A stretch of 64,000 nucleotides of DNA. Origin: Aeromonas aquatica (GTDB lineage Bacteria; Pseudomonadota; Gammaproteobacteria; Enterobacterales; Aeromonadaceae). Of this stretch, positions 4,332-58,134 are shown one piece after another. Under the pieces are notes generated by a model. It searched no databases. It was not told where the DNA came from and saw only the letters and a program-made list of their open reading frames with translations. The stretch spans positions 1-64,000 of the forward strand of contig NZ_JRGL01000118.1 in assembly GCF_000764655.1 (NCBI RefSeq), in the 5' to 3' direction. The number at the start of each line of letters is the position of its first letter. Position 1 is the first letter of the stretch. The position numbers were made by a program, and so were the translations under genes.

Positions 4332-4469
4332 GCGGCGCTGGATCGCCCCTCTTCATGATGTGCCGCATCCATGAGGTACGTCCTTTAATCTGCCGCGAGT
4401 TCGAGATGGGCGAACCCGACTGCATCGATGAACGGGACAAGTGGTTTATCACGCTGAACTAGCCGCACG
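4332..4469 (+). pseudogene. First extra copy of the ykgJ-like 3' end
   Basis: This 138-bp segment repeats the gene's final codons from GCGGCGCTGGATCGC through the stop and six bases beyond. Downstream of the ATGATG at 4355 the copy differs from the gene by one amino-acid change (Tyr to His) and two synonymous codon changes (CCA to CCT, CTC to TTA). A two-base gain just before the ATGATG breaks the frame. A 35-codon frame from 4355 remains open and ends on the same TAG. Confidence 0.85.
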
Positions 4470-4648
4470 GCGGCGCTGGATCGCCCCTCTTCATGATGTG
4501 CCGCATCCATGAGGTGCGTCTTTTAATCTGCCGCGCGTTCGAGATGGGTGAACCCGACTGCATCGACGAGCGGGACAAGTGGTTTATCACGCCGAACTCG
4601 CCACGACACCCGACGCCGATTGGGTACGCCATGTTCTATTGCAGTTAA
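4470..4648 (+). pseudogene. Second, more diverged copy of the ykgJ-like 3' end
   Basis: This tandem copy starts 138 bp after the first one. It carries further synonymous changes (GTA to GTG, GGC to GGT, GAT to GAC, GAA to GAG) and replacements (Pro to Leu, Glu to Ala, Leu to Pro). The stop TAG has become TCG, so the frame from 4493 runs on to 4648, giving a possible 51-residue peptide. No good ribosome site is seen; I treat it as a decaying remnant. Confidence 0.8.
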
Positions 4649-4725
4649 TAAAACGTTGCTGCTATCATCCGCGCCACCCAAGGTTCCACCTGCCGTAACC
4701 TTTCACACCGCCGCAAGGATCAGAG

Positions 4726-6123
4726 ATGAAAACTCACGATGCGAATCATTACCAACGGATCTGGCGCTGGCACTTCTACGCCGGGCTCTTCGTCGCGCCC
4801 TTCCTGATCCTGCTCTCCCTCACCGGCATGGTGTATCTGTTCAAGCCTCAGCTCGACAACATCATGTACCCCGAGCTGATGAAGGTGATCCCCGCTAGCC
4901 AAACCCTGAGCGCCGATGCCCTGCTGGCCAAGGCGATGATGGCCATGCCGGACGCCAGCCTCAGCAAGTACCTGCCCCCTGCGGCCCCCGATCAGAGCGC
5001 CCAGTTCATCGTCCGCCAGCAGGGCAGCGAACTGACCCTGTTTATGGATCCCGCCAGCGGCGCCCTGCTCGGCACCATGGACAACCAGTGGAATCTACAG
5101 GCGGTCGCCCGCGCCCTGCACGCGGAGCTGCTGATCGGCACCACGGGGGATCGCCTGATAGAGCTGGCCGCCGGCTGGGGCATAGTGCTGCTCATCAGCG
5201 GCCTCTATCTGTGGTGGCCGCGCAAGGGCCCCGGCGTCGGTGGCATCCTCTGGCCCAGAATGAGCCAGCGTGGGCGCCTCTGGTGGCGGGATCTGCATGC
5301 CGTGGTCGGCTTCTGGGGAGCGGGCTTCCTGCTGCTGTTGTTGCTGAGCGGCATGACCTGGACCGGCTTCTGGGGCGATCAGTTCGCCAACGTCTGGAAT
5401 CGCTTCCCTGCCGCCATGTGGAACGAGGTACCGAAATCCGCCCCCCTCACCCGCAGCCTCAACCAGGCTCACTCGCAGACCGTCCCTTGGGGGACTGAGA
5501 CCCTGCCCATGCCGAGCTCGCAGCCAGTCGCCGAGGGTCATGACCACAGCGCCATGAACCACGGCGACGGGCACGATGGCATGGTGATGCCAAGCCATCG
5601 CATCCCGCTGCAGCAAGTGGTGGAGATCGCCAGAGAGCGCAAGGTTACCCCGGGTTACAGCATCACCCCGCCCGCCGGTGAGAGCGGCGTCTACACCATC
5701 GCCCTGTTTGCCGACGATCCGCGCAACGACGCCACCCTGCACATCGATCAATACAGCGGCAAGGTGCTGGCCGACGTGCGCTGGCAGGATTACGGCCCGG
5801 TCGCCAAGACGGTGGAAACCGGCGTCATGCTGCACACCGGCAAGCTCTACGGCTGGCCCCACCAGCTCGTCATGCTGATCATCTGCCTGATGGTGTTGCT
5901 GAGTGCGGTGAGCGGCCTCTGGATATGGTGGAGCCGCCGCCCGCAAGGCCGGCTCGCCGCCCCCCCCCTGCCCGCCAAACTACCGCCGATGCGCGGTGCC
6001 ATCGCCGTGCTGGTGCTGCTCGGCGTCTGTTTCCCGTTGGTCGGTGCCTCCATGCTCGTCATCTGGCTGCTGGACAGCCTGATCTTTTCCCGCCGGGAAA
6101 CCGAAGCGGCGCAGACCAGCTGA
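4726..6123 (+). CDS. PepSY-associated membrane protein (iron-regulated type)
   Basis: The 465-residue inner-membrane protein follows the PepSY_TM plan. A first membrane helix starts near residue 15 (WRWHFYAGLFVAPFLILLS). A periplasmic PepSY segment, a second helix near 150, a third near 200 and C-terminal helices near 385 and 425 follow. Relatives are linked to siderophore and iron uptake or flavin-dependent reduction. A distinctive His/Met-rich loop lies at about residues 268-292 (EGHDHSAMNHGDGHDG), a likely soft-metal-binding insert. AAGGATCAGAG precedes the ATG. I do not see a clear Fur box. The gene is alone between the ykgJ remnants and a bidirectional terminator. Confidence 0.85.
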   Translation: MKTHDANHYQRIWRWHFYAGLFVAPFLILLSLTGMVYLFKPQLDNIMYPELMKVIPASQTLSADALLAKAMMAMPDASLSKYLPPAAPDQSAQFIVRQQGSELTLFMDPASGALLGTMDNQWNLQAVARALHAELLIGTTGDRLIELAAGWGIVLLISGLYLWWPRKGPGVGGILWPRMSQRGRLWWRDLHAVVGFWGAGFLLLLLLSGMTWTGFWGDQFANVWNRFPAAMWNEVPKSAPLTRSLNQAHSQTVPWGTETLPMPSSQPVAEGHDHSAMNHGDGHDGMVMPSHRIPLQQVVEIARERKVTPGYSITPPAGESGVYTIALFADDPRNDATLHIDQYSGKVLADVRWQDYGPVAKTVETGVMLHTGKLYGWPHQLVMLIICLMVLLSAVSGLWIWWSRRPQGRLAAPPLPAKLPPMRGAIAVLVLLGVCFPLVGASMLVIWLLDSLIFSRRETEAAQTS

Positions 6124-6167
6124 GCCATTTGGCATAAACGGCGGCCTTGGCCATCAGTTCTATTAAT

Positions 6168-6199
6168 GCAATAAGGGCTCCCATTAGGAGCCCTTATTA
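6168..6199. terminator. Bidirectional terminator between convergent genes
   Basis: A 12-base perfect stem (AATAAGGGCTCC with GGAGCCCTTATT-type arm, 4-base loop CATT) flanked by A/T runs separates the PepSY gene from the convergent minus-strand unit. Confidence 0.85.
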
Positions 6200-6211
6200 A
6201 TTTATTCATCC

Positions 6212-6430
6212 CTAGGCAGTGGCTTCCACCAGCCTGATGATCTTGCTGGCCTTCTCGAAGTGGTCGAGCTCATGGGTCTGGATCCACCAGGTGGCGGCCT
6301 CCATCAACAACGCCGGATCCTCATTCTTGTTGGCAAAGAAGGCGTAGAAGGAGACGCCAACCCCCTCCCCCTTCCGGGCGATTTTCTGGTGGCAGACCCG
6401 GATCATCTTCTCTCTCAGTGATGCGCGCAT
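6212..6430 (-). CDS. Small conserved protein, DUF6500-like
   Basis: The 72-residue soluble protein has a conserved-looking core (SFYAFFANKNEDPALLMEAATWW). I recall similar small proteins in Vibrio and Shewanella annotated DUF6500; that name is from memory and function is unknown. It begins only 13 bases after the stop of yjiA on the same strand, so it is probably the last gene of the btsT-yjiX-yjiA operon. The bidirectional terminator follows. Confidence 0.7.
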   Translation of the reverse strand: MRASLREKMIRVCHQKIARKGEGVGVSFYAFFANKNEDPALLMEAATWWIQTHELDHFEKASKIIRLVEATA

Positions 6431-6443
6431 CGGCGGATATTCC

Positions 6444-7457
6444 TCACTCTTGTGTCTGCAGAAAACCGGCTCGCAACTCGTCGACGGGCAGGTAGCGGCC
6501 GATGATCACCAGCTTTGAGCGCGGGATTTCCTCTCCCCAGGGGGAGCCATAATCGAACCCCGCCACCTTGTGCACCCCCTGCACTATCAGCCGGCGCGGC
6601 TCACCCGCGATGGCCAGCACCCCCTTGTAGCGCAGCATGTCATTGCCATGCTGATCTATGCACTGCTCCATGAAGGCGCCGATCCGCTTCAGATCCAGCT
6701 CGCCCCCCTCGAACAGCTGGGCCGAGATGGCGTCGTGCCAGGAGCGCGGCTGGGCCGAGAGCGGCGAGAAGGCCTCGAAGCCCTGGCGCCCGGCCCGCAC
6801 TATGTTGAGGCCAGGACTCAGGCCGAGCTCGTCGCTGAGGGTAAAAGCATCGAGATCCAGCCAGAGTTCGGCCGGGCACTCCCCCTGCACTATGTCGATG
6901 ATCTGCGCCCTGGGGTTGATCCTGTGAACGCGGGTGATGGCGGCCTCCCGCGTCCCCTCGTCCACCCTGTCGGTCTTGGTGAGCAGGATGCGATCCGCAA
7001 AGCCGAGCTGGGCCGCCGCCACCGGATACTCGTCCAACTGGCGGGCGATGTGCTCACAGTCGGCCAGGGTGATGACGGCGTCCAGGCGCAAGGCATCGCG
7101 CAACTCTTCTTCGACGAAGAAGGTCTGGATGATGGGGGCGGGATCGGCGAGCCCCGTGGTCTCGACGATCAGCCGCTCGAACTTCAGCTCTCCCGCCGTC
7201 CGCCGGGCCAGCAGATCGGCCAGCGCGGCCCTGAACTCACCGCGCACGCTGCAACAGACGCAGCCGTTGCTGAGCTCCACCACGCTGATCCCCGCCCCCC
7301 TTTGCAGCAGGTCTCCGTCGATATTGGCGGCGCCGAACTCGTTCTCAAGGATGGCCACGGAGGCGTTGGCCTGGTGGCGCAGGAAGTGGTTGAGCAAGGT
7401 GGTCTTGCCGGCGCCGAGAAAACCGGTCAGCAGGGTGACCGCTACAGCCTGGGTCAT
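6444..7457 (-). CDS. yjiA: YjiA-type COG0523/CobW zinc-binding GTPase
   Basis: The 337-residue protein has the P-loop GFLGAGKTT (12-20), the family metal motif CVCC (Cys66, Cys68, Cys69), and a C-terminal CobW domain. COG0523 GTPases act in metal (often zinc) delivery; the client here is unknown. The ATG at 7457 (MTQAVAVTLL) is preceded by AGGAC and matches E. coli YjiA. The gene follows yjiX and btsT in the E. coli order. A second copy of its first nine codons lies 85 bp upstream (7510-7542). Confidence 0.93.
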   Translation of the reverse strand: MTQAVAVTLLTGFLGAGKTTLLNHFLRHQANASVAILENEFGAANIDGDLLQRGAGISVVELSNGCVCCSVRGEFRAALADLLARRTAGELKFERLIVETTGLADPAPIIQTFFVEEELRDALRLDAVITLADCEHIARQLDEYPVAAAQLGFADRILLTKTDRVDEGTREAAITRVHRINPRAQIIDIVQGECPAELWLDLDAFTLSDELGLSPGLNIVRAGRQGFEAFSPLSAQPRSWHDAISAQLFEGGELDLKRIGAFMEQCIDQHGNDMLRYKGVLAIAGEPRRLIVQGVHKVAGFDYGSPWGEEIPRSKLVIIGRYLPVDELRAGFLQTQE

Positions 7458-7509
7458 GATGAAAGTCCTGTGGTGAGGGGATATATCTAGCCAGAGCCGA
7501 GAAGACCAT

Positions 7510-7542
7510 TCAAGCAAGGGTGACCACTACCGCTTGCGTCAT
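7510..7542 (-). pseudogene. Extra copy of the yjiA 5' end (micro-ORF)
   Basis: Starting at an ATG 85 bp upstream of yjiA, the sequence encodes MTQAVVVTL, Ala, stop, against MTQAVAVTL in the gene. Four of nine codons differ synonymously (ACG/ACC, CAA/CAG, GCG/GCT, CTT/CTG) and one changes Ala to Val. GGAG precedes this ATG, so the ten-codon frame could be translated. The homology stops after the ninth codon. Confidence 0.8.
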
Positions 7543-7573
7543 GATGGGCTCCGGTGATGGATGTATGAGGGGC

Positions 7574-7611
7574 CGTTGAGGTTTCATCGCGACAGCGCCG
7601 AAACCTCAACG
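7574..7611 (-). other. Intercistronic hairpin between yjiX and yjiA
   Basis: An 11-base perfect inverted repeat (CGTTGAGGTTT with AAACCTCAACG) encloses a 16-base loop just after the yjiX stop. No T run follows, so it looks like an mRNA-stability or processing hairpin rather than a terminator. Confidence 0.6.
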
Positions 7612-7615
7612 TCTC

Positions 7616-7813: not shown

Positions 7814-7839
7814 GCTAGCTCCTTGGGGCTATCGATGAG

Positions 7840-7863
7840 GGCCGGCACCCAGGGGTGCCGGCC
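7840..7863 (-). other. Intercistronic hairpin between btsT and yjiX
   Basis: A perfect 11-base GC stem (GGCCGGCACCC with GGGTGCCGGCC, two-base loop AG) lies between the btsT stop and the yjiX start, with no T tract. It probably marks differential stability or partial termination within the operon. Confidence 0.6.
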
Positions 7864-7874
7864 TGCTGACTCGC

Positions 7875-12749: not shown

Positions 12750-14483
12750 ATGCCCGCCAGTCCAGTGTCTGTGCATCAAGCGTTTGCCAGTCAACATGCC
12801 ACCTTCAACCACGTCTGGTCCTCCCTCCTGCTGGAGGAGCTCTATCGCCTCGGCGTGCGGGACATAGCGCTGGCCTCCGGCTCCCGCTCGGCGCCGCTCA
12901 CCATGGCCGCCGCCGCTCACCCCGGTTTTCGCCGCCACCTGCACTTTGACGAGCGGGGCCTCGGCTTCATGGCACTGGGCCTCGCCAAGGGCAGCGGCCG
13001 ACCGGTGGCGGTGATCATGACCTCGGGCACCGCGGTGGCGAACCTCTGGCCCGCGGTGGCCGAGGCGCAGCTGACCGGGGTACCGCTCATCATCCTCTCC
13101 GCCGACCGGCCCCCCGAGCTCATCGACAACGGCGCCAATCAGGCCATCGACCAGCAGGGGATCTTCGGGCGCTACCCCGTCTATCAGCAGAACCTGCCGA
13201 GCCCGACTCCGACCATACCGGCCGCCTTCGTGCTGAGCTCGGTGGATCAAGCCCTGGCCCAGCAGGCGCACACCCCCGGGCCAGTGCACTTCAACTGCAT
13301 GTACCCCGAGCCGCTCTATCCCGGCGACCACTATCTGGACTTTGCCGACTACCTGGCGCCGCTGGGCGACTGGCTGCGCTCGGACGCGCCCTGGAGCCCC
13401 TGGCTCGCGATCGAACCAGGCTGCCCCGTTCAACCCGACTGGGCCGAGCTGCAGGGCAAGCGCGGCGTCATCATCGCGGGGCGCATTCAGGATCCCCTAC
13501 AAGGGCAGGCGGTGGCCGAACTGGCGGAGCGCCTCGGCTGGCCGCTGCTGGCGGATCTGCAGAGCCAGATCCGCTTCGACAGCCGCAACCTCATCCACGT
13601 GGATCTCGCGCTGCAAGACGACTGCTTCGTCGCCGAGCTGGCCCGCGCCGAGGTGCTGCTGCAGTTCGGCGCCCGCCTCATCTCCAAGCGGCTCGGCCAG
13701 TTCATCAAGCAACACCCCTGGCAGGACTACTGGCTGGTGGACTCGCAACCGGCCAGGCTGGATCCGGACTACCGGCTGCGCCGCCGCCTGCTGTGCGAAC
13801 CCGCCGCCTTCGCCGCCAGCCATCCGCTCGCCACTCAACAGCCGCCCTGGCATCGGCTGGGGGAGCGCCAGCAACGGGCGACCCGCCAGATCCGCGCCGC
13901 CTGCGATCGCTTCTCCGAGCTCGGGGTCTGCCACCGCCTGAACGCGCTGATCGAAGGCCAGCTGTTCGTCGGCAACAGCATGCCGGCCCGGCTGATGGAC
14001 ATGCTCGGCGAACCCGGCAAGGGGCCGAGCCGGGTGATGACCAACCGCGGCGCCTCCGGCATCGACGGCCTGATCGCCACGGCCTATGGCTTCGCCCAGA
14101 GCCGCGATGAGCCAACCACCTTGCTGCTCGGGGATCTCAGCGCCCTCCATGACCTCAACAGCCTGGCCCTGCTCGGCAAGACGAGCCGTCCGCTGGTGGT
14201 GATCCTGCTCAACAACGATGGCGGCAGCATCTTCCGCATGCTGCCGGTGCCCACCGGCGATCGGCTGCTGGAGACCTACTACTGTCTGCCCCACGGCCTG
14301 CACTTCGAGCACGCCGCCGCCATGTTCGGCCTCCAGTATCGGGCACCGACTACCCTGGCCGAGTTTGAACTGGCCTACGCCGCCGCCCTGGAAAAGGGCG
14401 TAACCCTGATTGAAATCAAGGTACCGAGCCAGGAAGTGGCCGAGGATCTGAAGGCATTGGGAAGCGCGATCCGTGGCAGCTAG
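12750..14483 (+). CDS. menD: SEPHCHC synthase MenD (thiamine-diphosphate enzyme)
   Basis: The 577-residue enzyme condenses isochorismate with 2-oxoglutarate to SEPHCHC. The thiamine-diphosphate motif runs from [12 protein letters not shown] to [10 protein letters not shown]; the N-terminal substrate domain starts with [14 protein letters not shown], as in E. coli MenD. The ATG at 12750 is preferred to one 8 codons earlier. The final about 25 codons are present again in the 90 bases before menH, with mainly synonymous differences. The in-gene tail now ends in GGC AGC TAG. Confidence 0.93.
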
Positions 14484-14504
14484 AGCACAGGCAAGCATCA
14501 TCCA

Positions 14505-14583
14505 GATTGAAATCAAGGTTCCACATCACAGCGAACTGGCCGAGGATCTAAAGGCTCTGGGAGCGGCGATCCGTGGCCATTGA
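14505..14583 (+). pseudogene. Extra copy of the menD 3' end overlapping menH
   Basis: The segment encodes [19 protein letters not shown], then AAIRGH and stop, against [18 protein letters not shown], then SAIRGS in menD. Differences include GTA/GTT, CCG/CCA, CTG/CTA, GCA/GCT and TTG/CTG, all synonymous, plus one added codon. Its TGA (14581-14583) overlaps the menH start by 11 bases, the sort of overlap menD itself would be expected to have in an intact operon. It therefore looks like the original menD tail, displaced from the gene body. Confidence 0.85.
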
Positions 14584-28738: not shown

Positions 28739-28838
28739 AAAAGAGGAAATCCTTGGTAGAGAAGTCGTCAGTTTTTACTTCCTCATTTTAGCTCAATACT
28801 GTTGTCGAACATGAGCACAACCTCACAGGAGCACCATC

Positions 28839-29015
28839 ATGAGCCAAGCATCTTCCCCCAAACCGAGCCAGATCCAGCAAACCCTGCGCCGTTACTTCCA
28901 GCGGATCCTGCCCCGCCCGTTGCCGTCAGTCGAGGATCCCATGGCCCAGCTCAACCGCCTGATGCAGTGGGACATGCACCAGATAGACGACAGGGAGTAT
29001 CGCCGCCGCCTCTGA
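28839..29015 (+). CDS. SgrT-like micro-protein divergent from sgrR
   Basis: The 58-residue product (MSQASSPKPS at the start, C-terminus DREYRRRL) has a good ribosome site (CAGGAG, then 7 bases, ATG). Its second half contains LNRLMQWDMHQIDDRE. E. coli SgrT, as I recall it, ends LEGLMQWDDRNSES, so LMQWD plus following acidic/Arg residues is shared. SgrT blocks the PtsG glucose transporter during sugar-phosphate stress. I do not see the conserved SgrS pairing region or a U-tract terminator in the 150 bases downstream. The gene may therefore be an SgrT protein without a classical SgrS RNA, or the RNA is too diverged to recognise. Confidence 0.6.
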   Translation: MSQASSPKPSQIQQTLRRYFQRILPRPLPSVEDPMAQLNRLMQWDMHQIDDREYRRRL

Positions 29016-29093
29016 TTGGGCCAGGACTCCGGGCAGGGAAGGGCGCCGCAGGATCACTGCAAGCCCCTGACAATGCTTTGCCGGATTGGGTGG

Positions 29094-29129: not shown

Positions 29130-29170
29130 ATCCATCCATAATGGCGACGACGTCCAACAAGGAGTGTGTG

Positions 29171-30439
29171 ATGAAAGATGCGACCCTGGCCCTGCACCAC
29201 GGCTTTTCCCACGATCCCGCCACCAAGGCGGTGGCCGTGCCCATCTACCAGACGGTGGCCTACGAGTTCGACAGCGCCCAGCACGGGGCGGATCTGTTCA
29301 ACCTGGCGGTGCCTGGCAACATCTACACCCGCATCATGAATCCCACCAACGACGTGCTGGAACAACGGATGGCCGCCCTCGAGGGGGGTATCGCCGGTCT
29401 GGTGGTCTCGGCGGGTTCCGCCGCCATCACCTACGCCATCCAGGCGCTGACCGCCGCCGGCGACAATATCGTCTCCACCCCCCAGCTCTATGGCGGCACC
29501 TACACATTGTTCGCCCACATGCTGCCGAGCTTCGGGGTCGAGGTGCGCTTCGCCGCGGATGATAGCGCCGAGGCCATCGCCGCCCTCATCGACGACAAGA
29601 CCAAGGCGGTCTATTGCGAGAGCATCGGCAACCCGGCGGGCAACATCGTCGATCTTGCCGCCTTCGCCAAAGTCGCCCACGCCCGTGGCGTGCCGCTCAT
29701 CGTCGACAACACTGTCGCCACCCCTGTGCTGTGCAAACCCATAGAACACGGCGCCGACATAGTGGTGCACAGCCTCACCAAATATGTCGGTGGCCACGGC
29801 AACTCCCTCGGTGGGGTCATCGTCGACTCGGGCAAGTTCCCCTGGGCGGATCACCCCGCGCGCTTCCCCCAGCTCACCAGCCCGGAGCCCTCCTACCACG
29901 GGGTGGTCTACACCGAGGCGTTTGGCGCTGCGGCCTTTATCGGCCGGGTGCGCACAGTGCCCCTGCGCAACACAGGGGCGGCGCTGGCCCCCATGAACGC
30001 CTTCCTGCTGCTGCAGGGGCTGGAGACTCTGAGCCTGCGCATGGAGCGCCACGTGGACAACGCCCTGCGGGTCGCCCATCACCTTAAAGGCCACCCCAAG
30101 GTGGCCTGGGTCAGCTATGCCGGTCTGCCGGGCCATCCCCACTACCCGCTGGCGGAGAAGTACATGGGCGGCCGCCCCTCGGCCATCCTCTCCTTCGGTC
30201 TGAAGGAAGGGTATGAGGCCGGGGTCCGCTTCTACGACGCCCTCAAGATCTTCAAGCGGCTGGTCAACATAGGCGACGCCAAGTCCCTGGCCTGCCACCC
30301 CGCCTCCACCACCCATCGCCAGCTGAGCGAGGAGGAGCAAGCCAGGGCCGGAGTCAAGCCGGAGATGATCCGGCTGTCGGTGGGGATCGAAGCCATCGAG
30401 GACATACTGGCGGATCTGGATCAGGCGCTGGAGGCCTGA
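29171..30439 (+). CDS. metY: O-acetylhomoserine sulfhydrylase (MetY-type PLP enzyme)
   Basis: The 422-residue Cys/Met-metabolism PLP enzyme makes homocysteine from O-acetylhomoserine and sulfide. Seen are YTRIMNPTNDVLEQRMAALEGG near residue 55, the PLP-lysine in VHSLTKYVGGHG, and ACHPASTTHRQLSEEEQ near the C-terminus, typical of MetY. AAGGAG precedes the ATG at 29171. A MetJ-type operator overlaps its promoter. MetA in this window has Gly111, associated with succinyl-CoA use, so the acyl-homoserine substrate of this enzyme deserves testing. Confidence 0.9.
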   Translation: MKDATLALHHGFSHDPATKAVAVPIYQTVAYEFDSAQHGADLFNLAVPGNIYTRIMNPTNDVLEQRMAALEGGIAGLVVSAGSAAITYAIQALTAAGDNIVSTPQLYGGTYTLFAHMLPSFGVEVRFAADDSAEAIAALIDDKTKAVYCESIGNPAGNIVDLAAFAKVAHARGVPLIVDNTVATPVLCKPIEHGADIVVHSLTKYVGGHGNSLGGVIVDSGKFPWADHPARFPQLTSPEPSYHGVVYTEAFGAAAFIGRVRTVPLRNTGAALAPMNAFLLLQGLETLSLRMERHVDNALRVAHHLKGHPKVAWVSYAGLPGHPHYPLAEKYMGGRPSAILSFGLKEGYEAGVRFYDALKIFKRLVNIGDAKSLACHPASTTHRQLSEEEQARAGVKPEMIRLSVGIEAIEDILADLDQALEA

Positions 30440-30540: not shown

Positions 30541-31167
30541 ATGATAGTCCTGCACCACCTGAACAAGTCCCGCTCCCAACGCATCATCTGGCTGCTCGAA
30601 GAGCTGGGCCTGCCCTACCAGATCAAGGCCTACCAGCGCGATGCCACCAGCTTCCTGGCGCCCCCCGAGCTCAAGGCCATCCACCCCCTCGGCAAGTCAC
30701 CCGTCATCGAGTTCGACGGCCGGGTGCTGGCGGAGTCCGGCGCCATCACCGAGTACCTGATCGCCCGCCACGCCCCGGAGCGGCTGGCGCCAGCCACCGA
30801 CAGCCCCGACTACCCCGAGTACCTGCAATGGATCCACTTCGCCGAAAGCTCCGGCATCTTGCCGCTGCTGCTGGACATGTTCGTGCGCAAGGATGGCAGC
30901 CCGATGCGCTTCCTGCCGGGTTACACCAAGGCGGAGTGCGCCAAGGTACTGGGCTATCTCAATGAGGTGCTGGCCAGCCGCCACTATCTGGTGGGGGATC
31001 GCCTCTCCGGCGCCGACATCATGAACTCCTTCCTGGTGGATCTGCTGGCCCAGATCGGTCAGCTGGCCCAGTTCCCGCACCTTAAGAGCTACTGGGAACG
31101 CCTTAATACCCATCCGGCCCGCCAGAAGGCGGCCGCCCTGGAGCGCGAGCTGGATCAGAGCGCCTGA
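30541..31167 (+). CDS. Glutathione S-transferase family protein
   Basis: The 208-residue protein has the GST plan: an N-terminal thioredoxin-like domain with SRSQRIIWLLEELGLPY and the glutathione-contact LAESGAITEYL (about 65), then an all-helical C-terminal domain with GDRLSGADIMNSF. The active-site position in the N-terminus reads Lys-Ser-Arg-Ser, consistent with Ser-type bacterial GSTs. GAGGTTCCC precedes the ATG. Substrate is unknown. Confidence 0.9.
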   Translation: MIVLHHLNKSRSQRIIWLLEELGLPYQIKAYQRDATSFLAPPELKAIHPLGKSPVIEFDGRVLAESGAITEYLIARHAPERLAPATDSPDYPEYLQWIHFAESSGILPLLLDMFVRKDGSPMRFLPGYTKAECAKVLGYLNEVLASRHYLVGDRLSGADIMNSFLVDLLAQIGQLAQFPHLKSYWERLNTHPARQKAAALERELDQSA

Positions 31168-31350: not shown

Positions 31351-32502
31351 TCACAGCGCGTGGGAGAGGATCCTGGCGACCTTGTCCGGATCTATGTCCT
31401 GCTGCTCCCCGAGCGAAGTCAGGCCGAAGCGCTTGAGGTTGGAGCAGATCGCCGGGATGCTGCTCTCCGTCAGGCCATAGTCGACGAGGCGGGTGCCCAC
31501 CCCCATCTGCTGGAAGAACTGCTCGGTGCGGATAATCGCCTCCTCGATGCGCAGCGCCCTGTCCTCCCGGTTGGAGTGCCAGACCCGCTCGGCAAACTGG
31601 GCCAGCTTCTCCTGCTTCTGGGCGGCCTGCTCCCGCAGCAAGGAGGGCAGCACCACCGCCAGGCTCTGGGCATGATCCAGCCCATAGAGGGCGGTCAGCT
31701 GATGGCCGATGGCGTGGGTAGACCAGTCCTGGGGCACCCCACGGCCGATGAGGCCGTTGAGCGCCAGGCTGGCGGCCCACATCAGGTTGGCCCGCACCTG
31801 ATAGTTGGTGGGCTCCTTCAGCGCCCTGGGCCCGTTGTCCACCAGCACCTGCAGCAAGCCTTCCGCCAGCCTGTCCTGCACCTCGCCACCCACCGGGAAG
31901 GTGAGGTACTGCTCGATGATGTGGACGAAGGCATCCACCACCCCATTGCCAATCTGGCGCGTCGGCAGGCTGTAAGTGGTGGTGGGATCCAGCACCGCAA
32001 ATTGCGGCAGCACCTGCGGGCTCATGAAGGAGAGCTTGGCATCCCCCCGGCTCACCACGGCGGCGGGATTGCTCTCGGAGCCGGTGGCGGGCAGGGTCAG
32101 CACGCAGCCAAGGGGCAGCGCCGCCTTGACCGGCGTCTTGTGCAGCAACAGGTCCCAGGGATCCTCCCCCTCGAAACAGGCGGCGGCGGCCACGAACTTG
32201 GTGCCATCCACCACAGAGCCACCGCCGACCGCCAGCAGGAAGTCGATGCGCTCGCGCTTCACCAGGGCGACCGCCTCCATCAACTGACTGTACTGGGGGT
32301 TGGCACCTATGCCGGAGAACTCCTGCCAATCCAGGCCAGCCAGGGCGTCACACAGCTGCTGATAGACCCCGTTTGTCTTGATGCTGCCACCGCCGTAGAG
32401 CACCAGCAGGCGACTGCCGCTCGGGATAAGCTCCGGCAGGCTGGCTATCTGGCCCTCCCCGAAACAGATGCGGGTGGGATTGGCATATTGGAAGTTGTAC
32501 AC
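31351..32502 (-). CDS. yqhD: NADPH-dependent aldehyde reductase YqhD
   Basis: The 383-residue iron-containing-alcohol-dehydrogenase family protein aligns along its length with E. coli YqhD (387), which reduces aldehydes with NADPH. Visible are VGGGSVVDGTKFVAAAA, LPATGSESNPAAVVSR, and metal ligands Asp/His in GNGVVDAFVHIIEQY, STHAIGHQLTALYGLDHAQ. I chose the GTG at 32502 (VYNFQYANPTR) because it aligns with the E. coli start and has GAGGG seven bases upstream; an ATG at 32526 has no ribosome site. Its 3' end is repeated downstream. Confidence 0.9.
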   Translation of the reverse strand: MYNFQYANPTRICFGEGQIASLPELIPSGSRLLVLYGGGSIKTNGVYQQLCDALAGLDWQEFSGIGANPQYSQLMEAVALVKRERIDFLLAVGGGSVVDGTKFVAAAACFEGEDPWDLLLHKTPVKAALPLGCVLTLPATGSESNPAAVVSRGDAKLSFMSPQVLPQFAVLDPTTTYSLPTRQIGNGVVDAFVHIIEQYLTFPVGGEVQDRLAEGLLQVLVDNGPRALKEPTNYQVRANLMWAASLALNGLIGRGVPQDWSTHAIGHQLTALYGLDHAQSLAVVLPSLLREQAAQKQEKLAQFAERVWHSNREDRALRIEEAIIRTEQFFQQMGVGTRLVDYGLTESSIPAICSNLKRFGLTSLGEQQDIDPDKVARILSHAL

Positions 32503-36646: not shown

Positions 36647-36886
36647 TCACTCATGATCCTGCGCCCTCATCCTGCGCTGGATGAAGATCAACAGGTGCAG
36701 CCCGAACAGGCCGCTGCCACCGAGAGCGAACAGCAAACCGGTAAGGGCATTGACCGAGACATCGGCACCCGCGCACCACCAGGCCAACCAGCCGAGCGCT
36801 CCTATGAGCAGGCTCTGACCAGCGCAGGCAGGACAACGCCCCAACTTGGCCCGGATGGCGGTGGCGAGGCAGTCATCACAACTCAT
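36647..36886 (-). CDS. Small membrane protein with zinc-ribbon start, DUF3624-like
   Basis: The 79-residue protein starts with a cysteine knuckle pattern, SCDDC and CPAC (Cys3, Cys6, Cys18, Cys21), followed by two hydrophobic segments (about 25-40, 45-68). This resembles the DUF3624 family of Vibrio/Shewanella/Aeromonas as I remember it. Function is unknown. GAGGAGG lies five bases before the ATG. Four additional copies of its ribosome site and first ten codons lie upstream in a 76-bp tandem array that reaches the end of the GNAT gene. Confidence 0.75.
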   Translation of the reverse strand: MSCDDCLATAIRAKLGRCPACAGQSLLIGALGWLAWWCAGADVSVNALTGLLFALGGSGLFGLHLLIFIQRRMRAQDHE

Positions 36887-45606: not shown

Positions 45607-46554
45607 CTATGCCTTGGGTTGCTCGTAGGTGAACACCTTGCCGATGTCTTCCAACCGGTAGCTGGTGAGCTGGTAGACGTAGTAGTTGAGCCAGTTGGAG
45701 AACAGCAGATGGCCATGACTGCGCCAGCTGGCCCGCGGCGTCTGGCCGGGATCGTTGTCCGGGTAGTAGTTGACCGGGATGACGGGGGTGAGCCCGGCCG
45801 CCAGATCCCGCTGATATTCGCCATCCAGGGTCAGGGCATCGTATTCCGGATGGCCGGTGACGAACACCTGACGACAATCCTTGGTCGCCGCCAGATAGAC
45901 CCCGGCTTCCTCTGACTCCGCGAAGATCTGCAGATCGGTGTGGGCGCGGATGAGATCCCCGTCGAACGCCGCATAGCGGGAGTGGGGGGCGACGAACTCG
46001 TCGTCGAAACCCCGCAGCAGCGCCTCGTGCTCATCGAGGCGATGGTGGCGATAGACCCCTGACAGCTTCTCGCCGTGGGTCTGTTTCTCCATGCCATACA
46101 AGGCCTTGAGCGCCGCCTGCACGGCCCAGCACAGGAACAGGGTCGAGGTCACATGCTGATGGGACCACTCGATGATCTCGACGATACGCGGCCAGTAGAC
46201 CACCTCTTCGAACTCCACCAGCCCGAGTGGCGCCCCCGTGATGATCATGCCGTCGTAGTTGTTGCCACGCACCTGCTCGAAGTCGTGATAGAAGTTCTCC
46301 AGGTGCGCCTGGGGCGTGTTCTTCGACTCCCGATCGTCGATGCGCAGCAGATCCACGTCCACCTGCAGCGGCGAGTTGGAGAGCATCCGCATCAGCTGGA
46401 TCTCGGTCTCGATCTTCTTGGGCATCAGGTTGAGGATGAGCACCCGCAGCGGGCGGATGTTCTGGGTGACGGCCCGGGATTCCGTCATCACGAAGATGTT
46501 CTCCTGCCCCAGCACTTCGGCGGCGGGCAACTGGTCCGGGATCTTGATCGGCAT
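45607..46554 (-). CDS. metA: Homoserine O-succinyltransferase
   Basis: The 315-residue enzyme starts methionine synthesis by acylating homoserine. Catalytic Cys142 (LFLCWAVQ), His235 and Glu237 (VTGHPEY) have E. coli numbering. Gly111 in [10 protein letters not shown] is the residue associated with succinyl-CoA preference, whereas Glu at that place marks acetyl-CoA users. A MetJ-type operator lies about 30 bases upstream. The C-terminal tail is repeated three times in the 3' spacer, so the present tail may not be the original one. Confidence 0.94.
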
Positions 46555-48407: not shown

Positions 48408-48411
48408 GCTC

Positions 48412-49316: not shown

Positions 49317-50411
49317 TCAATCCAGGCTCTTCTTGAAGCGGTGGGCGGCCAGGGTCAGCATCAGCAGGGTGAAGCCCAGCAGCCAGAGCACGTCCGGCAG
49401 CAACTCCGACAGCTCCCCGCCCCGCAGCACCACTCCCCTGATGATCCGCATGAAGTGGGTGGCGGGCAGCACCTCGGCGATCCACTGGGCCGGGGCCGGC
49501 ATCCCCTCGTAGGGGAACATGAAGCCCGACAACAAGATGGACGGCAGCAGGATAAACACCGTCATCTGCATCGCCTGCAACTGGGTCTGGGCCAGGGTGG
49601 AAATGAGCAGCCCCAGGGTCAGGCTGGCGGCGATAAACAGCAGGGTCGCCAGCAACACCTGGCTCAGGGCGCCGTTGATGGGCACCGCGAAGATGAAGTG
49701 GCCGAGGCCGAGGATGATGGCGACCTGGATCAGTCCCACCCCTATGTAGGGCAGGATCTTGCCGATCATCAGCTCCATCGAGCCGACCGGGGTGGTGATG
49801 AGCAGCTCCAGATTGCCGCGCTCCCGTTCGCGCACTATGGCCGCCGAGGTAAACATGATCATGGTCATGGTGAGGATCACCCCGAGCAGGCCGGGCACTA
49901 TGTTGACCGCCGAGCGGCGGGCCGGGTTGAAGTAGAGCACCGTCTCGAAGGTGGGGGGGACAGGCTTGAGATCGGGCTTGAGCACGGTCAGCGGCATGGT
50001 GCGCAAGCCGAGCAGAGCCCCCGCTATCATGGTGTCCGAGCCATCCACCAGCCACTGGCCCGCGCTCTCGCCGGTGCTGAGTCGACGGTCCAGATCCGTG
50101 GGCAGCACCAGCACGGCCCGCACCTCCCCCCGGGTCAGGGCGGCTTCCGCCTGCTGGATACCGACGTAACGCTGCTTGATGCTCACCACCTGGCTCGCCT
50201 CCACCGCCTCCGCCAGCAGCCGCCCCGGCACGCTCTGGCTCATGTCCACCAGCCCGGCCGGGATCTGGCGCACGTCGCTATTGATGGCGTAGCCAAACAG
50301 CAGCAGCTGGATCAGCGGGATCATCACCACCATCCCAAACGTGAGCCTGTCCCGCGCCAGCTGCCTTAGCTCCTTCTGGGTAATTGCCCAGAGCCGCCTC
50401 AGACCGTCCAT
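49317..50411 (-). CDS. ABC-2 type transporter permease
   Basis: The 364-residue permease has a first membrane helix near residue 26-45, a large periplasmic loop, and five helices after 170, with the motif ERERGNLELLITTPV typical of ABC-2 exporters (YhhJ/YbhS-like). It is the permease of a three-gene exporter with the ATPase and HlyD-like genes upstream. Start is ATG 50411 (MDGLRRLW). A second copy of its first 30 codons lies upstream (ATG at 50536) and abuts the ATPase gene. Confidence 0.9.
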   Translation of the reverse strand: MDGLRRLWAITQKELRQLARDRLTFGMVVMIPLIQLLLFGYAINSDVRQIPAGLVDMSQSVPGRLLAEAVEASQVVSIKQRYVGIQQAEAALTRGEVRAVLVLPTDLDRRLSTGESAGQWLVDGSDTMIAGALLGLRTMPLTVLKPDLKPVPPTFETVLYFNPARRSAVNIVPGLLGVILTMTMIMFTSAAIVRERERGNLELLITTPVGSMELMIGKILPYIGVGLIQVAIILGLGHFIFAVPINGALSQVLLATLLFIAASLTLGLLISTLAQTQLQAMQMTVFILLPSILLSGFMFPYEGMPAPAQWIAEVLPATHFMRIIRGVVLRGGELSELLPDVLWLLGFTLLMLTLAAHRFKKSLD

Positions 50412-54441: not shown

Positions 54442-55251
54442 ATGTACAAGCTGATCGCATTGGATATGGATGGCACCCTGTTGACCCAGCAAGGTCAGAT
54501 CACCCCCCGCACCCACGCCGCCATCGCGGCCGCGCGCGCCAGGGGCGTCACCGTAGTGCTGACCTCGGGCCGCCCGCTGGAAGGCATGACGGCCTATCTG
54601 GCCGAGCTCGGTCTCACCGGACCGGATGACTACGTCATCTGCTACAACGGCGCCCTGGTGCAGAAAGTCGCGGACCAACGCATCATCCGCAGCCAGCTGC
54701 TGACCGGCAGCGATGCCAGCGCCATCGCCCACCTGGCCGATGAGCTGGGGGTGAACATCCACGGCTTCTCCGTGCGCCAGGGCCTCATCAGCCCCAGGGT
54801 CAGCACCTATACCGAGCACGAGTCCCGCCTTGTAGACATGCCCATCAACCTGGTGGACTTCGCCACCCTGCCCGCCGACGAGCAGATCATGAAGGTGATG
54901 ATGATAGACCCGGAGCCCCAGCTCTCCCGCGCCATCGCCCAGCTGCCCGCCGAGCTCTACCAGCGTTACACTGTGGTGCGCAGCTCCCCCTACTTCCTCG
55001 AGTTCATGAACAAGCAGAGCAACAAGGGCACCGGCGTCGCCGCCCTGGCCGAGCATCTGGGCATCACCGCAGACGAGGTGATCGCAGTGGGGGATGCGGG
55101 TAATGACCGCCACATGATCGAATACGCCGGGCTAGGGGTTGCCATGGGCAATGCCACCGACGAGATCAAGGCGCTGGCGCAGCACATCACCAGCCGCAAC
55201 GACGAGGAAGGCGTGGCCAGGGTGATCGAGCAGTTCGTGCTGAATGCCTGA
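54442..55251 (+). CDS. yidA: Sugar-phosphatase YidA (Cof-type HAD)
   Basis: The 269-residue HAD hydrolase (E. coli YidA 270) starts KLIALDMDGTLL, with nucleophile Asp9 region; TSGRPLEGM, VMMIDPE, NKGTGVAALAEHLGI and AVGDAGNDRHMIEYAGLGVAMGNA complete the Cof pattern. YidA hydrolyses sugar phosphates such as erythrose-4-phosphate. Preceding GAGAAG is a modest ribosome site. Stand-alone with a terminator after it. Confidence 0.93.
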   Translation: MYKLIALDMDGTLLTQQGQITPRTHAAIAAARARGVTVVLTSGRPLEGMTAYLAELGLTGPDDYVICYNGALVQKVADQRIIRSQLLTGSDASAIAHLADELGVNIHGFSVRQGLISPRVSTYTEHESRLVDMPINLVDFATLPADEQIMKVMMIDPEPQLSRAIAQLPAELYQRYTVVRSSPYFLEFMNKQSNKGTGVAALAEHLGITADEVIAVGDAGNDRHMIEYAGLGVAMGNATDEIKALAQHITSRNDEEGVARVIEQFVLNA

Positions 55252-55622
55252 TCCCCGCCGGGGCACCCGAGGGTGCCCCGCATGTTTCACCACAGAATCT
55301 GCATGTTTAATATATCCACCACGATAACCTGCCCAATCCCCTCCGATACGCGCACAGCCCCCTGATACTGGGACTCAAGCTAGCTCAGCCGCCACAAGAT
55401 TTAACATTAACGCATCATTTCGTTTGACATATTGAACGGCCTTGGCAGACTGGGATCAGGATCCAGGCTGTCATTGCCCAGGCTGACCGACGATTCTGGC
55501 ACCGCGGCGCGACCCGGATCCCATGACCATGCCTTGAGGCATGCCCTTGCTGCTTAGCCGCCGCAAGGGCCTTCCCAAGGCGCAGGATGAGACACCACAG
55601 CCAAGGATAGCCAAGGTGACCT
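55252..55622. other. Spacer between yidA and the PuuD-like gene
   Basis: No gene is seen in these 371 bases. They contain the yidA terminator (55260-55279), an AT-richer stretch with a TTGACA hexamer at 55424, and a CATGCC/GGCATG hairpin at 55528-55543 in the presumed leader of the next gene. Confidence 0.55.
55260..55279 (+). terminator. Terminator-like hairpin after yidA
   Basis: A nine-base stem GGGGCACCC/GGGTGCCCC with loop GA is nine bases past the stop; a short T run (GTTTC) follows. Confidence 0.7.
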
Positions 55623-56399
55623 ATGCCCAGCCCCGCCCCCCGTACCGATCGTAAACCCGTCGTCCTGATGACCATGGGCGCCCAGCCCCGTAACGGTCAC
55701 CCCTATCAGGTCATGACCCACAAATACATCACTCCCCTGGTGGAGATCAGCGGCTGCGTGCCCCTGCTGGTGCCGACCTGCTGCGGTGCCGAGGATCTGG
55801 AGCAATATCTGGATCTGGCGGACGGCGTCTACCTGAGCGGCGCCGGCTCCAACATAGATCCCGCCCTCTACGGCCAGGAGAACCTGACCCCGGAGAAACC
55901 CCAGGACAGGGACAGGGATCTGTTCGATATTCCGCTGGTGCGCGCCGCCATCGACAGGGGCTTGCCGCTGCTCGGCATCTGCCGCGGCATGCAGGAGATC
56001 AACGTGGCCCTCGGCGGGGACATTCATCAGAAGGTCTATAACGAGCCCGGCTATGCGGATCACCGGGAGGACGCAGAGGATCCGGTGGAGGATCAATATG
56101 GCCACAGCCATCAGGTCAGCCTGGTGCCCGGCAGCTGGTTCGCCGAGCTGATGGGAGAGGAGCAGATCCCGGTCAACTCCCTGCACGGTCAGGGGATCAG
56201 GACGCTGGCCAAGGGACTGGCACCGCTGGCCTACGCCGAGGATGGCTTGATCGAGGCCATTTATGCCCCCGCCTTGCCCCAGTTCACCCTGGCGGTGCAG
56301 TGGCACCCGGAGTGGAAGGCGAGCGAAAACCCTCACTCCATCAAGCTGTTCGAGGCCTTCGGCGCCGCCTGCCGCGAGCGCAGACAACAGGCTGGCTAG
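55623..56399 (+). CDS. PuuD-like gamma-glutamyl-gamma-aminobutyrate hydrolase family protein
   Basis: The 258-residue class I glutamine-amidotransferase-like enzyme has nucleophile Cys120 in GICRGMQE and the His228/Glu230 pair in QWHPEW, plus YLSGAGSNIDPALYG. PuuD family members hydrolyse gamma-glutamyl-GABA in putrescine breakdown, but no puu genes are nearby, so substrate is uncertain. AAGGTG lies before the ATG. Confidence 0.88.
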   Translation: MPSPAPRTDRKPVVLMTMGAQPRNGHPYQVMTHKYITPLVEISGCVPLLVPTCCGAEDLEQYLDLADGVYLSGAGSNIDPALYGQENLTPEKPQDRDRDLFDIPLVRAAIDRGLPLLGICRGMQEINVALGGDIHQKVYNEPGYADHREDAEDPVEDQYGHSHQVSLVPGSWFAELMGEEQIPVNSLHGQGIRTLAKGLAPLAYAEDGLIEAIYAPALPQFTLAVQWHPEWKASENPHSIKLFEAFGAACRERRQQAG

Positions 56400-56533
56400 T
56401 CGCCTGATCCTTACGCTGGCCTGCGCCCATAGGGCGCAGGCCAGCACAACGCTTGTAAGCTGTTCACCTCTCTTCGTCAGCCACGCCGGCATGGCAAACG
56501 GGCGATGGCGTAGCACCGACGCCATGCGCTAGC

Positions 56534-56962
56534 ATGGTGCGCATCAGCCACCACCGGGATCCCCTCATGTTACTGATGGCCCTGGCCTTGAGCGCCAGCC
56601 TGCAATTCGATTGCCCACCCCAGATAGCGAGCCGCCAGCAACTGCTCTCCCCTACCACCGGTTGGCAGGGGGTGACTCGGGACCGGGAGGGAAAGCCGAG
56701 CCAGACGCTGCGCCACCGATTGGAGGCGCTGGCCCTGTTCGACGGTGAGCCGGGGGAATTGGCACAGCTGAAACCGGACAACGGCGACAGCGCCGAGACA
56801 CACTACTGGAGCCTGACGGGGGACGGGGCTCGCCCCCTCTATCTGGTCTGCCACTATCAGGACAGCGCCATCACCCTGCAGCAGGCGCTGCCCTCGGGCA
56901 TCACCTATTGCCGGGTCAATCAGACGGACTGGGGCCCCAGCGGCCTTATCTGCCGCAAGTAA
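56534..56962 (+). CDS. STY0301-like exported protein
   Basis: The 142-residue product has a hydrophobic stretch LMLLMALALSASL, then DCPPQI. Later come HRLEALALFDGEPGELAQLKPD, LVCHYQDSAITLQQALPSGITYCRV, and a C-terminal Cys. This matches the STY0301 family as I remember it; function unknown. The start is uncertain: 56534 gives a charged n-region; ATG 56567 is the alternative. Three to four cysteines could form disulfides in the periplasm. Confidence 0.75.
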   Translation: MVRISHHRDPLMLLMALALSASLQFDCPPQIASRQQLLSPTTGWQGVTRDREGKPSQTLRHRLEALALFDGEPGELAQLKPDNGDSAETHYWSLTGDGARPLYLVCHYQDSAITLQQALPSGITYCRVNQTDWGPSGLICRK

Positions 56963-56991
56963 CTCACGCAATTCACTCACGCCGGCAAGGC

Positions 56992-57702
56992 TCAGAGCAG
57001 CAGTTCCGCCAGCTCGCCGAGGGCACAGATCTCCACATCCGGCAGCAGTCGCAGCCGTTGGTGGGGCTGATTGCGCTCATTGAGCCAGGCGGCCCGAAAG
57101 CCGTGCAGACGGGCCCCCAGCACATCGGTCTCGGGATCGTCCCCCAGGTGCAGTATCTGGTCGGGGGGCAGCTTGAGGGCTGCCTGCGCCTGCAGGAACA
57201 TGTCCGGTGCCGGTTTCATCCGGGCGCCGGCTCCCGCCTTGCAGACCAGGGTGAAGTAGTCGCTCAAGCCGGCCTGCGCCAGATCCAGGTTGCCGTTGGT
57301 GATCACCACTAGCGGATAGCGCTCCGCCAGTCTCCCAAGCAGCGCGTGGGTCGCCGCGCTCACCACTATCTTCGAGCGCTCGGCGAGAAAGCCGGCGAAC
57401 ACCTGCTCCGCCTCCCGCTCGGCCAGCTCCAAGGGCATGCCGCCCTGCGTCATGGCCACACGGATGCAATGCTGGCGCGCCAGGCTGACGTCCTGGCATA
57501 GTTCGGGATGGGCGAGCAGTTGCTCGCGCTTGAGCGCCAGCCAGCGCGGCTTGTCCAGCATGGCGGTGGCCAGGTATGAGCTGCGCAGGTGCGCCAGCAT
57601 CCACTGCTCGGCCCGCAAGATAGCGGGGCCGTTGTCATAGAGGGTGTCATCGAGATCGAACGAGATGGCGGCCACCGGCTGCCAACGACGATAAAACTGC
57701 AT
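56992..57702 (-). CDS. yigB: HAD family hydrolase YigB
   Basis: The 236-residue HAD hydrolase starts with ISFDLDDTLYDNG (nucleophile Asp), later TNGNLDLAQAGL and HLGDDPETDVLGARLHGFRAAWLN. It matches E. coli YigB, which dephosphorylates 5-amino-6-ribitylamino-uracil phosphate in riboflavin synthesis and FMN. In E. coli the order is dapF-yigA-xerC-yigB, the same as here. AGGAG precedes the ATG. The xerC-yigB spacer is expanded to 432 bases by repeats. Confidence 0.92.
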   Translation of the reverse strand: MQFYRRWQPVAAISFDLDDTLYDNGPAILRAEQWMLAHLRSSYLATAMLDKPRWLALKREQLLAHPELCQDVSLARQHCIRVAMTQGGMPLELAEREAEQVFAGFLAERSKIVVSAATHALLGRLAERYPLVVITNGNLDLAQAGLSDYFTLVCKAGAGARMKPAPDMFLQAQAALKLPPDQILHLGDDPETDVLGARLHGFRAAWLNERNQPHQRLRLLPDVEICALGELAELLL

Positions 57703-57753
57703 GCTTACTCCTCTTGGTGGGACAAGATTTCCGCAGATCCATTGACTTGCCCC

Positions 57754-57917
57754 CTCATCCCCAACCCTTCTCCCGCGAGGGGAGAAGGGCGCAGATCGGC
57801 GATTGCGGATAGATCGTGGTTAACCGGTGGCCAAAAAATACGTGGTCGATGGCCGCCTTCGGCATTAACACAACCTCAATCGGCCCCCCTCCCTTTGGGA
57901 GAGGGGCAGGGTGAGGG
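57754..57917. repeat. Paired REP-like palindromes
   Basis: CCCTTCTCCC-GCGA-GGGGAGAAGGG (within 57754-57791) repeats the element after the CinA-like gene. CCCCCTCCCTTTGGGAGAGGGGC with GGGTGAGGG (57885-57917) is a related palindrome in opposite orientation. About 95 bases separate them; the pair could be one mobile REP doublet. Confidence 0.65.
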
Positions 57918-57952
57918 AAACAGGGCACCGAACCATTCGAGCACTGCACCTT

Positions 57953-58134
57953 TTACTCATCTTCCGGGGTCGCGGCATCCCGCTTGGCCCTGGCGAGTTG
58001 GACGCTGTCATTCCCTCGGATAACAGGTCACCGCCATACAAGGTCACTCATCATCCGGGGTTGCGGCATCCCGCTTGGCCCTGGCGAGTTGGACGCTGTC
58101 ATTCCCTCGGATAACAGGTCACCGTCATACAAGG
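57953..58134 (-). repeat. Two tandem 91-bp copies of the xerC 3' end
   Basis: Each unit has the last 13 codons of xerC ([12 protein letters not shown] and stop) plus a shared spacer. Stops lie at 58135 (gene), 58044 and 57953, exactly 91 bp apart. The inner copy is identical; the outer one has GCA to GCG (Ala), GAT to GAA (Asp to Glu) and a TAA instead of TGA stop. The outer copy, next to yigB, therefore looks like the tail of a different xerC allele. Confidence 0.92.

What the first reader, a model, noticed from the sequence alone, without database searches (positions are those of the whole stretch)
4332..58134. Recurring tandem copies of gene ends in spacers: a shared but unexplained process
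At eight clear loci in 64 kb, one end of an intact gene is present again in the adjoining spacer. These are extra 3' ends at ykgJ-like (4332-4606), menD (14505), yqhD (31242), metA (45367) and xerC (57953), and extra 5' ends at yjiA (7510), the DUF3624-like gene (36887) and the ABC permease (50399). A ninth, at the M9 gene, is weak. Two features stand out. First, in diverged copies the differences are often synonymous codon changes, so each copy was under protein-level selection before it came to lie beside the other. Second, the outermost copy often keeps what looks like the ancestral contact with the neighbour (ATGA overlaps at the permease and DUF3624 loci, the menH start, a stop overlap at metA). 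The in-gene end is then the newcomer. This fits replacement of gene bodies by incoming alleles that leaves the old end behind, or attachment-like scars of elements that rebuild a gene end. Later slippage would explain the exact 76-, 78- and 91-bp arrays. I know of no description of this pattern.
Basis: partly seen in the sequence, partly recalled or inferred. Interest (0 to 1): 0.85.

Follow-up and report, generated by a model that had tools for sequence, protein, structure and literature searches.

The report
Gene-end copies shuffled between Aeromonas species
In Aeromonas bacteria the last or first stretch of many ordinary genes is repeated in the gap beside the gene; the repeats look like short tandem duplications at gene borders that survive because they harm nothing, decay slowly, and are passed between species by recombination, and why this genus has so many is unknown.

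Summary
All eight named loci carry real tandem copies of a gene end (self-BLAST E 4e-6 to 2e-123); the ninth (M9) is marginal. The phenomenon is genus-wide: 19 such arrays in 800 kb of random stretches from six other Aeromonas genomes, against none in 900 kb from 22 other gammaproteobacterial genomes after two false hits were set aside. The same loci carry copies in some species and not in others. The nearest relative's gene end is closer to the in-gene end in 25 of 36 tests and to the spacer copy in 8, so the in-gene end is usually native. Spacer copies mostly decay like pseudogenes (spacer-side changes 45 synonymous, 73 non-synonymous; 36 frameshifting against 9 in-frame gaps). Import by homologous recombination is nonetheless clear at xerC, yqhD and DUF3624. 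No cargo, shared motif or distant partner was found, so attachment scars are unlikely. Best reading: border-spanning tandem duplications, tolerated because genes stay intact, partly homogenised and spread between species by recombination. The genus-specific excess is unexplained.

The parts
4034..4324 (+). ykgJ-like gene (CxxCxxCC zinc/iron-chelating domain), in-gene 3' end
   Evidence: Pfam PF03692
4332..4605 (+). two spacer copies of the ykgJ 3' end, unit 136-137 bp
   Evidence: copies in 13 of 29 genomes examined
6444..7457 (-). yjiA/CobW-family GTPase gene
   Evidence: PF02492, PF07683
7486..7546 (-). spacer copy of the yjiA 5' end, frameshifted; 28-bp linker at 7458-7485
   Evidence: linker 28/28 identical in G009, outer copy absent in G011
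12771..14483 (+). menD
   Evidence: TPP enzyme domains
14502..14577 (+). spacer copy of the menD 3' end, overlapping the menH start
   Evidence: similar copy and linker in A. tecta
31351..32502 (-). yqhD-like iron alcohol dehydrogenase
   Evidence: PF00465
31240..31348 (-). spacer copy of the yqhD-like 3' end
   Evidence: 99% to the in-gene end; linker identical in G022 and G023, copy absent in G011
36647..36886 (-). DUF3624 gene
   Evidence: PF12292
36887..37190 (-). four spacer copies of the DUF3624 5' end, 76-bp units, each an open 28-codon mini-ORF closing 11 nt past the next start
45607..46554 (-). metA
   Evidence: PF04204
45377..45606 (-). three spacer copies of the metA 3' end, 78-bp units
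49317..50411 (-). ABC-2 permease gene
   Evidence: PF12698
50412..50536 (-). spacer copy of the permease 5' end; open 45-codon mini-ORF starting at the upstream gene's ATGA and closing 13 nt past the permease start
58135..59112 (-). xerC
   Evidence: PF00589, PF02899
57955..58134 (-). two spacer copies of the xerC 3' end, 91-bp units
   Evidence: score 23 against shuffle maximum 21

Best explanation
The spacer copies are short tandem duplications (units about 60-170 bp) that straddle a gene border. Birth (inferred): slippage or unequal exchange at a few bases of microhomology duplicates a segment reaching from inside the gene end to near or past its terminus; such a duplication leaves the gene intact, whereas one inside a gene is mostly removed by selection, so survivors sit at gene ends. 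Afterlife (partly shown): unequal recombination between in-gene end and spacer copies adds and deletes units and keeps the terminal coding part alike, while linkers drift and outer copies decay. Spread (shown at several loci): homologous recombination carries repeated-end alleles between Aeromonas species. The two copies of the end can serve as homology arms on either side of the foreign linker (inferred), leaving the recipient's old end outermost in some cases. In operons the 5'-end copies seem held open as short coupled ORFs so that translation reaches the real start (open frames shown, coupling inferred). The cause of the genus-wide excess is not known.
For: Same loci, different units, presence/absence among congeners. 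Two junctions are readable by eye as few-base microhomology: yqhD TGATCCC with interior GCATCCC; A. rivipollensis menD, where the junction itself makes the stop codon. The coding fraction of units is near that of random duplications kept when not wholly inside a CDS: median 0.71 against 0.62. Outer copies decay: 36 frameshifting gaps against 9 in-frame; spacer-side changes 45 S / 73 N. Homogenisation: the own in-gene end is the (joint) closest of all in-gene ends in 17 of 31 copy-bearing cases over four loci. Interspecies transfer: A. rivipollensis (G022) xerC outer end and the bases after its stop equal the single in-gene end of its sister G023, while its own in-gene end differs; the window's yqhD neighbour gene is 93-95% to G023/G022 but 88% to sister A. 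eucrenophila, which lacks the copy; a 44-nt DUF3624 linker core is identical in the window and G018 although gene body is 69% and neighbour 81% alike; the yjiA linker is identical to that of G009 (88% body) and the outer copy is absent in the sister. Permease: 8 of 8 outer copies in the six copy-bearing genomes (of 14 examined) are open and close 4-13 nt past the next start.
Against: In two-copy arrays the match usually stops at the stop or start codon: within 6 bp in 15 of 20 3' cases and 7 of 13 5' cases, against 8% for random duplication segments, and most linkers match neither native spacer (6 of 27 with z>2) nor gene interior (1 of 27). A plain recent duplication would carry matching spacer. 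I must assume that linkers are old or foreign while the coding part is refreshed; not shown locus by locus. 14 of 31 copies are not closest to their own in-gene end. The coding fraction differs slightly from the null (P about 0.03) and gene-terminus arrays exceed it (55 of 65 against 55%). No fresh event was seen between strains of one species. The rate difference from other genera has no explanation here.
Confidence: 0.68

Rival explanations
1. Gene-end replacement: incoming alleles recombine into the gene body and join illegitimately at the other end (homology-facilitated illegitimate recombination), so each copy is born as foreign end plus foreign linker plus displaced native end.
For: Explains matches flush with the stop codon and unmatched linkers. 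Outer copy closer to the nearest relative in 8 of 36 tests. xerC: G022 outer end equals G023's in-gene end; G017's outer end resembles the in-gene end of G036, and A. caviae's that of A. taiwanensis (read by eye).
Against: Inner end is closer to the nearest relative in 25 of 36 tests. Linkers are alike among some copy-bearing alleles but in the loci I read did not resemble the downstream spacer of single-copy species (by eye). The import cases are equally explained by ordinary double crossover with a donor that already had the repeat.
Confidence: 0.17
2. Attachment-like scars of small mobile elements that rebuild a gene end and were later lost.
For: Outer copy keeps the native contact; matches are flush with gene termini.
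Against: No same-strand pair 0.4-20 kb apart with one copy mostly coding and the other mostly non-coding in 12 syntenic regions (pairs under 400 bp, E<=1e-4), and no excess of shared 6-8-mers among 20 chosen linkers; linkers up to about 70 bp; many unrelated target genes; both 5' and 3' ends.
Confidence: 0.04
3. The copies are functional elements, for example coupled upstream mini-ORFs, kept by selection.
For: Permease: 8 of 8 outer copies open and closing at the next start; DUF3624 in the window: 4 of 4 mini-ORFs.
Against: Other copies carry frameshifts (36 frameshifting gaps in all; the yjiA copy stops after 10 codons); many species lack copies. Open frames at operon borders can be a constraint on surviving copies, not their reason.
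Confidence: 0.06
4. Assembly or masking artefact.
For: The window's genome is a 171-contig draft; one apparent hit in the controls was an N-gap artefact.
Against: Same arrays in single-contig genomes such as G009, G014, G023, G036; diverged copies are not expected from misassembly.
Confidence: 0.01

Closest known systems
rhs C-terminal tip displacement (Jackson et al. 2009, PMC2935791; abstract read)
   Same: Gene ends are replaced by laterally acquired ones through homologous recombination and old ends remain as dissociated remnants.
   Different: There it concerns a gene family with variable tips; here ordinary genes whose old and new ends encode nearly the same sequence, both 5' and 3' ends, many loci per genome.
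Tandem repeats / VNTR (minisatellite) loci of bacteria (general knowledge)
   Same: Head-to-tail units of 60-170 bp, variable copy number, similar units.
   Different: The unit contains a gene terminus and recurs at orthologous gene ends in many species, with diverged copies and interspecies exchange.
Merodiploids made by transformation (Johnston et al. 2013, PMC3784515; abstract read)
   Same: Repeats pair alternatively during transformation and unequal crossing-over gives tandem duplications.
   Different: Duplications there are about 100-900 kb; here about 0.1 kb, and no transformation was observed.
Homology-facilitated illegitimate recombination (start of abstract in a listing, PMC3240628)
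   Same: Homologous join at one end and illegitimate join at the other could leave a displaced gene end.
   Different: Not needed for most loci; no fresh one-sided join seen.

Membership tests
Bacterial tandem duplication / VNTR | head-to-tail repeat units at one place | tested here: met
Bacterial tandem duplication / VNTR | copy number varies between related genomes | tested here: met
   metA 0-3 extra copies, permease 0-2; between species only, no strains of one species compared
Bacterial tandem duplication / VNTR | whole unit, spacer part included, alike between copies | tested here: inconclusive
   true for multi-copy arrays; in two-copy arrays linker and native spacer are mostly unrelated
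rhs-type end displacement | in-gene end is the acquired one, remnant is the older native one | tested here: not met
   as a general rule: inner closer to nearest relative in 25 of 36, outer in 8, tie in 3; met at single loci such as G022 xerC
Attachment scars of mobile elements | cargo or integrase between the two ends in some genome | tested here: not met
   no coding/non-coding pair 0.4-20 kb apart in 12 regions; other genome parts not searched
Attachment scars of mobile elements | common sequence motif at the sites | tested here: not met
   no excess of shared 6-8-mers among 20 linkers
Homology-facilitated illegitimate recombination | one homologous and one illegitimate junction in a fresh event | not testable with these tools
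   needs several strains of one species

The most novel reading that the evidence does not exclude
In Aeromonas, duplicated gene ends form a self-spreading class of allele: end-linker-end carries its own two homology arms, so fragments of 100-250 bp suffice to insert it into any relative with a single end, and the genus has a mutation or recombination peculiarity that makes or keeps such alleles at about a hundred loci per genome, letting species swap the termini of housekeeping genes.
Probability: 0.3. Interest if true: 0.75.

Novelty: new variant of a known kind. Interest (0 to 1): 0.5.

Why it matters
If the genus-wide excess holds, Aeromonas offers many natural records of short recombination between species, at gene ends where such events are easily overlooked. 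It also warns annotators and typing schemes that gene ends can be duplicated and mosaic, and shows how small tandem duplications may act as portable insertion alleles. Eight answered searches of the held open-access papers (one search found no paper, the others gave capped listings of which I saw titles and starts of abstracts) showed no description of the pattern; most subscription papers are not held.

Tried and rejected
Mobile-element scars: no distant partner and no common linker motif. Plain recent tandem duplication for every locus: rejected for two-copy arrays because linkers mostly match neither spacer nor interior. In-gene end as general newcomer: rejected by the nearest-relative test. 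General protein-level selection on spacer copies: rejected by polarised changes, with a small residual synonymous excess (45 of 118 against 26%, P 0.002) that I cannot assign. Assembly artefact: rejected. The donor spacer as source of the linker was judged by eye only. I built no formal trees; closeness was judged by pairwise identity. No strain-level comparison was made. Gene calls come from a small codon-usage caller written here, not from annotation; and the counts built on it use only genes above a score cut-off, which drops DUF3624 from those tables. Counts of arrays: in the random Aeromonas stretches 24 arrays touch a spacer, 21 of them a gene end; the stricter gene-terminus list has 20, of which I dropped one protein-internal repeat (G023, stretch 8, 6363), leaving 19. 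In the controls 8 touch a spacer, 2 of them a gene end; I dropped both, one an N-gap artefact and one a 64%-identity repeat over two genes. One-sided P: 19 against 0, 6e-7; 19 against 2, 4e-5; 21 against 2, 1e-5; 24 against 8, 0.001. P values for this comparison used 720 kb for the Aeromonas side by mistake; the true total is 800 kb and one search replaces them.
Full report
OBSERVATION. Each has one copy in the end of an intact gene and one or more in the neighbouring spacer. Pfam supports the eight gene names. The M9 case is marginal. The window lies in a 171-contig Aeromonas genome whose nearest relative among the regions compared is G011, about 93% alike over this region. Contig lengths identify G011 as A. 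eucrenophila CECT 4224, and G017, G032, G022, G031 and G007 as A. lusitana, A. tecta, A. rivipollensis, A. taiwanensis and A. dhakensis.

HOW COMMON. In the syntenic region of ten congeners and one A. caviae record the same kind of array occurs, 0 to 10 outside genes per region, often at the same genes (ykgJ, yjiA, menD, yqhD, metA, permease, xerC, dapF) but with other units and copy numbers. In random 20-kb stretches of six single-contig Aeromonas genomes, 800 kb in all, 24 arrays touch a spacer and 21 a gene end; by the stricter gene-terminus criterion there are 20, and 19 after dropping one protein-internal repeat. In 900 kb from 22 other genomes (seven of the same family, one of the order, thirteen of the class, and E. 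coli K-12) eight arrays touch a spacer; two of these reach a gene end, one being an N-gap artefact and one a 64%-identity repeat over two genes, so I count none as genuine. The density is thus far above that of relatives (19 against 0, P 6e-7; 21 against 2, P 1e-5; all spacer arrays, 24 against 8, P 0.001). The window is denser still (8 in 64 kb), which partly reflects how it was chosen. The controls were sampled at two stretches or fewer per genome, E. coli at two 50-kb stretches.

ANATOMY. In two-copy arrays the match covers roughly 20-105 bp of the gene end and stops within 6 bp of the stop codon in 15 of 20 3' cases and of the start codon in 7 of 13 5' cases, against 8% expected for random duplicated segments. 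Between the copies lie up to about 70 bp of linker, which mostly match neither the native spacer (6 of 27 with z above 2) nor the gene interior (1 of 27). Yet the coding share of the whole unit (median 0.71) is near what random duplications would show if only those not wholly inside a gene survived (0.62; P about 0.03). That null model predicts that 55% of survivors contain a gene terminus; 55 of 65 do. Gene-end location is therefore largely what selection against intragenic duplications would leave, with an excess that fits longer survival of the coding part.

WHICH COPY IS OLD. For 36 gene-end tests in the syntenic regions the nearest relative's in-gene end is closer to the in-gene end in 25, to the outermost spacer copy in 8, equal in 3. 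So the in-gene end is usually native. Polarised with relatives, in-gene changes are 43 synonymous to 7, spacer-side changes 45 to 73, and sites variable among relatives 38 to 7. The spacer copies therefore decay nearly neutrally, with 36 frameshifting gaps against 9 in-frame, and the synonymous look comes mainly from the constrained side and from shared variation. A small excess on the spacer side remains (P 0.002) and suits ends that once were in genes.

RECOMBINATION. Several loci show transfer between species. (a) xerC: A. rivipollensis has an outer end identical over its last stretch and beyond the stop to the only in-gene end of its sister G023, while its own in-gene end carries two synonymous changes there, one further change upstream, another stop and a linker that by eye resembles that of the window. 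In one search this locus nevertheless counts as 'inner closer', because the interior side of the copy has decayed. (b) yqhD: the window shares linker and copy with G022 and G023 but not with its sister A. eucrenophila, and its neighbour gene is 93-95% like theirs but only 88% like the sister's, while the yqhD body is 95% like the sister's. (c) DUF3624: a 44-nt linker core is identical in the window and G018 where gene body and neighbour are 69% and 81% alike. (d) yjiA: the linker is 28 of 28 identical to G009 (body 88%) and the outer copy is absent in the sister. Homogenisation is also visible: for ykgJ, metA, xerC and permease the own in-gene end is the (joint) closest of all in-gene ends in 6 of 13, 3 of 5, 3 of 7 and 5 of 6 copy-bearing genomes. 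Presence in that test was 13 of 29, 5 of 30, 7 of 30 and 6 of 14 genomes, lower bounds because decayed copies (for example metA in G011) fall below the cut-off.

OPERON BORDERS. At the permease, all eight outer 5' copies in the six copy-bearing genomes (window, G009 two, G036 two, G014, G007, G024) are open and close 4-13 nt past the next start codon, with unit lengths all 2 mod 3; the four DUF3624 copies of the window close 11 nt past the next start. I take this as a constraint: copies between coupled genes persist only if translation is handed on. The yjiA copy, which stops after ten codons, shows no such constraint.

MECHANISM. Shown: tandem structure, polymorphism among species, decay of spacer copies, interspecies transfer at several loci, similarity to own ends in about half of cases. 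Inferred: birth by slippage at microhomology (readable by eye at yqhD and at A. rivipollensis menD, where the junction itself creates the stop codon), and spread in which the two end copies act as homology arms. Unexplained: why Aeromonas has so many. No cargo, motif or distant partner points to a mobile element.

KNOWN RELATIVES. The closest description found is C-terminal displacement in rhs genes (PMC2935791, abstract), which works alike at single loci but fails here as a general rule because the in-gene end is usually native. Transformation-made merodiploids (PMC3784515, abstract) show how repeats and transformation give duplications, at a thousandfold larger scale. Eight answered paper searches (capped listings, one empty) showed no description of gene-end copies in Aeromonas.

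Noticed in passing
57703-57863: Part of a dispersed repeat with CCCTCACCC / GGGAGAGGG-type inverted sequences, with matches at many places in many of the Aeromonas genomes searched (capped list); similar sequence lies between the ATP-binding gene and the permease in G011, G017 and G032, next to what look like short permease-start remnants (by eye).
   Followed up: partly
28838-29016: Rfam match to SgrS RNA (48.7 bits, gathering 37) overlapping a 58-codon ORF, upstream of the gene at 29141-30439.
   Followed up: no
30541-31167: Gene beside yqhD is 93-95% identical to G023/G022 but 88% to the sister A. eucrenophila (measured over 30600-31160): likely recombination import.
   Followed up: partly
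G023 syntenic region 55738-56196 (joined from L100-L103): Spacer copies of a HAD-family phosphatase 5' end (family and DMDG motif named from recall) in which the motif is replaced while flanking bases are intact.
   Followed up: no
L132, L133 (NZ_AP026896.1): A 4.94-Mb A. caviae record listed as a plasmid looks like a chromosome.
   Followed up: no
G022 syntenic region 57818-58321; A. caviae L133: Duplication spanning the ends of two convergent genes (offsets 250 and 156 bp), apparently at the same gene pair in two species; in G022 the outer copy is nearer to the sister G023 for the + strand gene.
   Followed up: partly
L296 (A. bivalvium menD): A menD 3'-end array with a linker that looks unlike those of the window and A. 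tecta (by eye).
   Followed up: no
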